DNA of 64,000 nucleotides, from positions 806,001-870,000 of the forward strand of contig NZ_CP124621.1 of assembly GCF_030012565.1 (NCBI RefSeq), read 5' to 3'. Numbering within the stretch: position 1 is the first letter of the stretch; the number at the start of each line of letters is the position of its first letter. The position numbers and the translations under genes were made by a program. Below are positions 62,515-62,602 of this stretch, in pieces. The notes beneath the pieces were generated by a model. That model did no database searches. It worked only from the letters and a program-made list of their open reading frames with translations, and was not told the DNA's origin. Source of the stretch: Mesomycoplasma ovipneumoniae (GTDB lineage: Bacteria > Bacillota_I > Bacilli_A > Mycoplasmatales > Metamycoplasmataceae).

Positions 62515-62602
62515 AAACTCCCGCCAAAGTGGCGGGAGTTTTAGTATTCTACTAAAACAAGTCTTATTTTTGACCGTGAATTTCTTATTATAATAAAGGC
62601 AC
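62515..62602 (-). ncRNA. tracrRNA-like locus (second, rearranged copy)
   Basis: Minus strand: -10 TGTACAAT at 62609-62614 predicts a start near G62602. The next ~40 bases (62561-62598) match the tracrRNA anti-repeat region at about 30 of 38 positions, including TAAGAAATT and CAAAAATAAGAC, which runs past the repeat-complementary part. Two perfect hairpins follow: GTTTTAGTA/TACTAAAAC (62538-62558) and AAACTCCCGCC/GGCGGGAGTTT (62515-62541). Promoter, anti-repeat and hairpins make an RNA gene plausible. It could also be a decayed copy. Confidence 0.55.

What the first reader, a model, noticed from the sequence alone, without database searches (positions are those of the whole stretch)
62515..62602. 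Second tracrRNA-like locus 33 kb from the CRISPR system
The minus strand carries a -10 box, a stretch matching the tracrRNA at about 30 of 38 positions including bases beyond the repeat complement (AAAAATAAGAC), then two perfect hairpins different from the tracrRNA 3' part. It is missing from the otherwise duplicated flank at 63571-63800. It could be an orphan tracrRNA paralogue that sequesters Cas9, guides it to a chromosomal promoter in the manner of scaRNA or tracr-L, or a relic of a lost array.
Basis: partly seen in the sequence, partly recalled or inferred. Interest (0 to 1): 0.85.

Follow-up and report, generated by a model that had tools for sequence, protein, structure and literature searches.

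The report
Decayed tracrRNA copy, a CRISPR fossil
A mycoplasma related to the sheep pathogen Mesomycoplasma ovipneumoniae carries, about 33 kb from its working CRISPR-Cas9 genes, a worn-out copy of the Cas9 helper RNA of a different Cas9 lineage, copied along with a tandem gene family and apparently no longer maintained: a genuine molecular fossil rather than a new regulator.

Summary
The minus-strand segment matches the window's tracrRNA at 30 of 38 positions; the next-best site scores 24 and 40 simulated windows reached at most 27. A covariance model built only from tracrRNAs finds it at E 1e-6. Relatives show what it is. Homologous copies sit at one chromosomal site in six related genomes, downstream of tandem 250-aa membrane-protein genes. 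They align end to end, upstream region included, with tracrRNAs of a different Cas9 lineage ("B", 40-46% identical to the window's Cas9), which occupies the same leuS-linked CRISPR site in other strains. The copies look unconstrained. All share a 1-nt deletion in the ancestral -10 box. The Cas9-handle core varies at least as much as the flanks (23/57 versus 142/459 columns) but is nearly invariant in working tracrRNAs (1/58). Nexus base pairs are mostly broken, and repeat pairing has dropped from about -40 to about -20 kcal/mol. I found no built-in guide or repeat mimic. Best explanation: a B-type tracrRNA pseudogene, multiplied as a passenger, whose hairpin may still terminate the neighbouring gene. 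"Relic" is supported; the regulator ideas are not.

The parts
62512..62647 (-). Whole orphan module homologous to B-lineage tracrRNA genes (promoter region, 5' hairpin region, anti-repeat, nexus region, terminator)
   Evidence: Alignment with G014/G018 tracrRNA genes; E 3.9e-15 for G018 tracrRNA against this element in the local search; CM hit 62512-62619; two classes of upstream context meet the module at about 62647
62615..62647 (-). Remnant of the ancestral tracrRNA promoter; TGTATAATTA of working tracrRNAs reads TTTAAATTA here and TGTAAATTA or TTTAAATTA in all copies (1-nt deletion in the -10)
62599..62615 (-). 5' hairpin GTACAA-TTAAC-TTGTGC, counterpart of the hairpin at the 5' end of the window's tracrRNA; pairing not conserved among the copies
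62587..62592 (-).
   Evidence: promoter-like matches in the region 4 found, 3.8 expected
62561..62598 (-). Decayed anti-repeat plus AAAAATAAGAC; duplex with this genome's CRISPR repeat -19.0 kcal/mol against -41.4 for the real tracrRNA and about -9 for shuffles
62538..62558 (-). Former nexus region; a perfect GTTTTAGTA-GAA-TACTAAAAC hairpin in this genome only; 1 of 3 nexus-base pairs left
62519..62537 (.). Terminator-type hairpin TCCCGCC-N5-GGCGGGA, probably now serving the + strand gene 61565-62314; shared with the duplicated flank at about 63774-63792
   Evidence: least variable part of the module (7/38 columns)
61565..62314 (+). 250-aa-class membrane protein gene, second of three tandem paralogues; the element lies in its 3' flank and is copied with it
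   Evidence: no Pfam or NCBIfam family reaches its cut-off
62818..63570 (+). Third tandem paralogue, divergent from the element; its own 3' flank keeps the hairpin but not the tracrRNA-like part
29009..29116 (-). Working tracrRNA gene of the resident (A-lineage) system, for comparison
   Evidence: 107 bits; invariant core in six A-type genomes apart from one column
25118..28924 (-). cas9 (A lineage, 1268 aa), next to leuS at 22373-24913

Best explanation
The element is a tracrRNA pseudogene. A tracrRNA gene of the B-type Cas9 system, which in other strains occupies the same leuS-linked CRISPR locus, was copied next to a family of tandem 250-aa membrane-protein genes in an ancestor of the M. 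ovipneumoniae complex. Its -10 box was lost before the copies spread. The hairpin became, or already was, the 3' end of the neighbouring + strand gene, and the tracrRNA-like part has since multiplied with that gene array and drifted at the neutral rate. It has no Cas9-dependent role now. Shown here: tracrRNA homology, nearest relationship to B-type tracrRNAs, shared promoter lesion, lack of constraint on the core, broken nexus pairs, copying with the gene array. Inferred: the direction and order of the copying events, lack of transcription, and the role of the hairpin as terminator of the + strand gene.
For: Full-length alignment with the B-type tracrRNAs of G014 and G018, upstream region included; best pair G018 tracrRNA versus G007 copy 78% over about 130 nt, E 2e-23, whereas this genome's own tracrRNA matches over only 37 nt. 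In the tree all copies separate from all tracrRNAs with support 100, and the G018 tracrRNAs join nearest. A and B CRISPR loci both lie beside leuS. All copies lack one base of TGTATAATTA. Core 23/57 variable columns against 142/459 in flanks (p 0.18) and 1/58 in working tracrRNAs. Indels inside AAAAATAAGGC in several copies. Nexus-base pairs 0-2 of 3 in every copy against 3 of 3 in the tracrRNAs. Repeat duplex -19 to -27 kcal/mol with the A repeat and -23 to -31 with B, against -33 to -41 for tracrRNAs. Same chromosomal site beside the ABC-transporter genes in all six genomes, one to three copies each.
Against: AATAAGAAATT and the 3' hairpin remain fairly well kept, and repeat pairing is still far above shuffles in every copy. 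The core is not significantly more variable than the flanks, so the test shows absence of constraint, not acceleration. In this genome and G013 a TGTACA-18-TATAAT promoter-like pair has appeared, so a transcript is possible. Degenerate repeats can be functional in CreTA modules (PMC9458426). Only six genomes, one per species cluster, were available.
Confidence: 0.8

Rival explanations
1. In this genome and G013 the relic has gained a new promoter and makes a short RNA (about 65 nt) that binds Cas9 weakly through the AAAAATAAGAC part and acts as a decoy that tunes Cas9 loading.
For: TGTACA-18-TATAAT at 62616-62587; the transcript region folds better than shuffles, z -4.5; AAGAC matches the resident tracrRNA; G013 carries two near-identical copies.
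Against: Transcription from that -10 would drop the 5' half of the anti-repeat; promoter-like sites in the region equal the shuffle mean; 1 of 3 nexus-base pairs remains; the perfect hairpin of this genome is broken in the 98%-identical G013 copies; much of the folding score comes from the shared terminator hairpin; weak U-tract on the minus strand.
Confidence: 0.08
2. A tracr-L-like or CreA-like natural guide RNA that directs Cas9 to the promoter of the divergent 250-aa gene or of cas9, repressing it.
For: Divergent position next to a membrane-protein gene; tracrRNA-derived sequence; functional degeneration is documented for CreTA repeats (PMC9458426).
Against: No repeat mimic upstream of the anti-repeat (-6.0 kcal/mol against shuffle mean -8.8) and no guide match in the window beyond chance (12 nt; shuffled control mean 12.8); copies lie next to two unrelated upstream contexts; the element follows the 3' ends of the genes, not a fixed promoter.
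Confidence: 0.03
3. The segment never was a tracrRNA: AT-rich chance similarity or an unrelated small RNA.
For: AT-rich genome; short conserved core; no Rfam family reaches its gathering score.
Against: 30/38 against a simulated maximum of 27; E 1e-6 with a tracrRNA-only model; other copies align over the whole tracrRNA gene with E down to 2e-23.
Confidence: 0.02
4. A conserved 3' element of the 250-aa genes, with a function unrelated to Cas9 (terminator or mRNA 3' stability element), recruited from a tracrRNA gene.
For: The hairpin is the least variable part (7/38 columns); copies always lie downstream of these genes; presence follows the gene family, not Cas9.
Against: Flanks without the tracrRNA-like part keep the hairpin and apparently serve the same genes (this genome's third gene, G012's second gene), so only the hairpin could matter.
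Confidence: 0.07

Closest known systems
tracrRNA of Mycoplasma type II-A CRISPR-Cas9 systems (PMC6882279)
   Same: Order of parts, anti-repeat sequence AATAAGAAATT, AAAAATAAG, nexus position and terminator; sequence homology over the whole gene
   Different: -10 lost, nexus-base pairs broken, repeat pairing halved, 33 kb from cas9, belongs by descent to another Cas9 lineage, core no longer conserved
tracr-L of Streptococcus pyogenes (PMC11417352)
   Same: Derived from a tracrRNA
   Different: tracr-L joins tracrRNA and guide in one molecule and depends on the nexus; here no guide, no repeat mimic, broken nexus
scaRNA of type II systems (PMC6199352)
   Same: Lies outside the array and the cas genes
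   Different: scaRNA carries a repeat-like segment that pairs with tracrRNA; this element carries the anti-repeat
CreTA modules with degenerate repeats (PMC9458426, PMC8501985)
   Same: Degenerate CRISPR-derived sequence next to a small gene
   Different: CreTA uses ectopic repeats plus a guide with Cascade; here there is no repeat and no guide
RNA anti-CRISPRs, Racrs (PMC10651486)
   Same: Could in principle compete for Cas9
   Different: Racrs are repeat mimics in viral genomes; this is an anti-repeat in a stable chromosomal gene array, and the only viral hit to the core pattern is a chance match inside a reading frame

Membership tests
Functional type II-A tracrRNA | Anti-repeat that pairs stably with the resident CRISPR repeat | tested here: not met
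   -19.0 kcal/mol against -41.4 for the resident tracrRNA; still above shuffles at about -9
Functional type II-A tracrRNA | Paired nexus after AAAAATAAG(G/A)C | tested here: not met
   1 of 3 nexus-base pairs in this genome, 0-2 in all copies, 3 of 3 in the tracrRNAs
Functional type II-A tracrRNA | Own promoter upstream of the anti-repeat | tested here: not met
   Ancestral TGTATAATTA lost by a 1-nt deletion in all copies; a new TATAAT lies inside the anti-repeat
Functional type II-A tracrRNA | Rho-independent terminator with U-tract | tested here: inconclusive
   Hairpin present; minus-strand tail GTTTCC is weak; no site passes the scan on either strand
Functional type II-A tracrRNA | Core under purifying selection | tested here: not met
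   23/57 variable columns against 142/459 in flanks and 1/58 in working tracrRNAs
Functional type II-A tracrRNA | Transcribed and bound by Cas9 | not testable with these tools
   No expression or binding data available
tracrRNA pseudogene / CRISPR relic | Homology to tracrRNA genes over their whole length | tested here: met
tracrRNA pseudogene / CRISPR relic | Evolution at the rate of the surrounding non-coding DNA | tested here: met
   No significant difference between core and flanks, p 0.18
tracr-L | Guide plus internal repeat mimic upstream of the anti-repeat | tested here: not met
scaRNA | Repeat-like segment that pairs with the tracrRNA | tested here: not met
   The element has the anti-repeat sense
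CreTA | Ectopic repeat plus guide complementary to the partner gene's promoter | tested here: not met
   No repeat, and no match beyond chance within the window; matches elsewhere in the genome were not scanned
Racr | Repeat mimic encoded by a mobile element | tested here: not met
   Anti-repeat sense; chromosomal context with ABC-transporter genes; no viral relative

The most novel reading that the evidence does not exclude
In the lineage of this genome and G013, the B-type tracrRNA relic has been re-activated by a new promoter as a short Cas9-binding decoy RNA in cells that now carry an A-type Cas9, a cross-lineage tracrRNA acting as a brake on Cas9.
Probability: 0.06. Interest if true: 0.8.

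Novelty: new member of a known kind. Interest (0 to 1): 0.3.

Why it matters
It shows that a tracrRNA gene can leave its CRISPR locus, be multiplied as a passenger of an unrelated gene array, and stay recognisable in strains that carry a different Cas9 lineage. Such fossils record past CRISPR systems and are a trap for tracrRNA and scaRNA predictors that score only anti-repeat similarity; the useful check is comparative (core against flanks, nexus pairing). A further species (G018) carries an intact-looking tracrRNA gene about 160 kb from its cas9, so dispersal of tracrRNA genes in this genus is recurrent and could sometimes be functional.

Tried and rejected
Rfam, gathering and permissive thresholds: nothing at the gathering score. 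Pattern with the wrong spacer length (7 instead of 6): no true site, kept as a control. Viral contigs: one match, inside an open reading frame, a chance hit. Guide and repeat-mimic test for tracr-L: negative. Association with Cas9: among genomes of the genus the element occurs only in Cas9-positive ones, but it also follows the 250-aa gene family and is absent from Cas9-positive G012 and G016, so linkage to the gene array explains it better. cas1, cas9 and leuS remnants near the orphan copies: none found. The two proteins of the 36-56 kb region that were identified are SecY and RNA polymerase alpha, and 56-60 kb encodes an ABC transporter; no sign of a mobile element there. One genome-contig scan identified the group as M. 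ovipneumoniae SC01-like.

Full report
What is there. The window belongs to the Mesomycoplasma ovipneumoniae complex: the only named relative of the neighbouring gene is strain SC01, and a code with TGA = Trp gives long reading frames. It has a type II CRISPR locus: cas9 25118-28924 (-), tracrRNA 29009-29116 (-), cas1 and cas2 with a third gene at 30393-31166 (+) that has no family hit, and an array of more than 50 repeats from 31234. The reported element lies at 62515-62602 (-), between the second and third of three tandem 250-aa membrane-protein genes that follow an ABC transporter.

Is the match real. The tracrRNA 38-mer and the element agree at 30 of 38 positions. The next-best site outside the CRISPR locus scores 24, and the best score in 40 order-3 simulations was 27. 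A covariance model made from 12 tracrRNAs of related genomes, with none of the orphan copies, scores the element at 49 bits, E 1.1e-6. Searching whole genomes with the same model finds most orphan copies too.

Relatives. Copies occur in G000 (one), G013 (three), G014 (two), G015 (two), G011 (two) and G007 (one). They sit at the same chromosomal site, downstream of the same ABC-transporter genes and 3' of the 250-aa genes. G012 (contig length equal to that of SC01 contig17) has two of the genes but only the hairpin part of the flank. The other genomes of the genus lack the gene family, apart from one distant match in G009, and lack the element.

Which tracrRNA it comes from. G014, G011 and G018 carry a second Cas9 lineage ('B', 40-46% identical to the window's Cas9), and each has two tracrRNA genes near cas1. 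In G014 and G011 the B system occupies the same place beside leuS as the A system does in the window, G012 and G016. The orphan copies align with B-type tracrRNA genes over the whole gene including the promoter region; the G018 tracrRNA against the G007 copy gives 78% identity over about 130 nt, E 2e-23, while the window's own tracrRNA matches the element over 37 nt only. The tree separates copies from tracrRNAs with support 100 and places the G018 tracrRNAs nearest to the copies. All copies pair better with the B repeat than with the A repeat. The element is therefore related by descent to the tracrRNA of another lineage, not a duplicate of the one in this window.

Is it maintained. (i) Every copy has lost one base in TGTATAATTA, the -10 region of the Cas9-linked A and B tracrRNA genes. 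(ii) In two sets of five copies, the stretch between AATAAGAAATT and the nexus is the least conserved segment (0.67 and 0.78 identity; flanks 0.84-0.94), with indels in AAAAATAAGGC. Counted by column, the core varies at 23/57 positions, the flanks at 142/459 (p 0.18), while working A and B tracrRNAs vary at 1/58. (iii) Of the three nexus-base pairs, which co-vary in real tracrRNAs (GC to AU), 0 to 2 are left in each copy. (iv) Repeat duplex energies are -19 to -27 kcal/mol (A repeat) against -33 to -41 for tracrRNAs and about -9 for shuffles. (v) The GC hairpin is the best-kept part (7/38 columns). It lies at the 3' end of a + strand gene and is also kept where the tracrRNA-like part is missing. 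This pattern is what a pseudogene drifting at the local rate would give.

Mechanism rejected or left open. A tracr-L-type natural guide needs a guide and a repeat mimic upstream; the upstream 118 nt pair with the anti-repeat less well than shuffles, and its 5' region matches nothing in the window beyond chance. A scaRNA would carry a repeat, not an anti-repeat (PMC6199352). Racrs are repeat mimics of viruses (PMC10651486); no viral relative was found. CreTA modules show that degenerate CRISPR-derived sequences can work (PMC9458426), which is why decay alone is not proof; but here the features a Cas9-bound RNA would need are the ones that drifted. What remains open is a lineage-specific re-activation in this genome and G013, where a TGTACA-18-TATAAT pair and a well-folding 98-nt segment (z -4.5) are present. 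The perfect hairpin that contributes to the fold is already broken in G013, so I rate this at a few percent.

Literature. The Mollicutes survey describes tracrRNAs with a conserved lower-stem base and GC-rich nexus base and notes inverted gene order in M. ovipneumoniae NM2010 (PMC6882279); it does not mention orphan copies in the passages read. The M. ovipneumoniae population study reports frequent recombination in cas9 and strains without a functional CRISPR system (PMC11364169), in keeping with exchange of systems at the locus. I did not find a report of this element; the library lacks most subscription journals.

Noticed in passing
L112:3233-3392 (G018:C1:298270-298385): An intact-looking third tracrRNA gene (102.7 bits, -10, full anti-repeat, paired nexus, terminator) about 160 kb from the cas9 of that genome; a better candidate for a functional orphan tracrRNA.
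   Followed up: partly
L095:3514-4077 (G014), L108:7662-8195 (G011), L096:4663-9036 (G018): B-type CRISPR loci carry two tracrRNA genes near cas1; in G018 a cas1 fragment follows the first copy, suggesting a partial tandem duplication.
   Followed up: partly
window 22373-31166 and L095, L108: Two Cas9 lineages (40-46% identity) occupy the same leuS-linked site in different genomes of the complex, with different gene order.
   Followed up: partly
L135 (G027:C1:62080-62195): A tracrRNA-like gene far from the broken cas9 of that genome (542-546 kb) with no array nearby; possible relic in another genus.
   Followed up: partly
L143 (G028:C5:30799-30879): Two CRISPR-repeat-like units in a genome in which no Cas9 was found; probably an array remnant.
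   Followed up: no
L125 (G026:C1:352405-352510): tracrRNA next to cas1 and an N-terminal cas9 fragment, while the rest of cas9 lies about 26 kb away: a rearranged locus.
   Followed up: no
window 62650-62700: A roughly 50-nt sequence upstream of the 250-aa gene that recurs at many places in genomes of the genus (query positions 1-50).
   Followed up: no
window 60547-63570: Tandem family of 250-aa membrane proteins of unknown function, fast-diverging (56-66% between the three), limited to this species complex apart from weak matches.
   Followed up: partly
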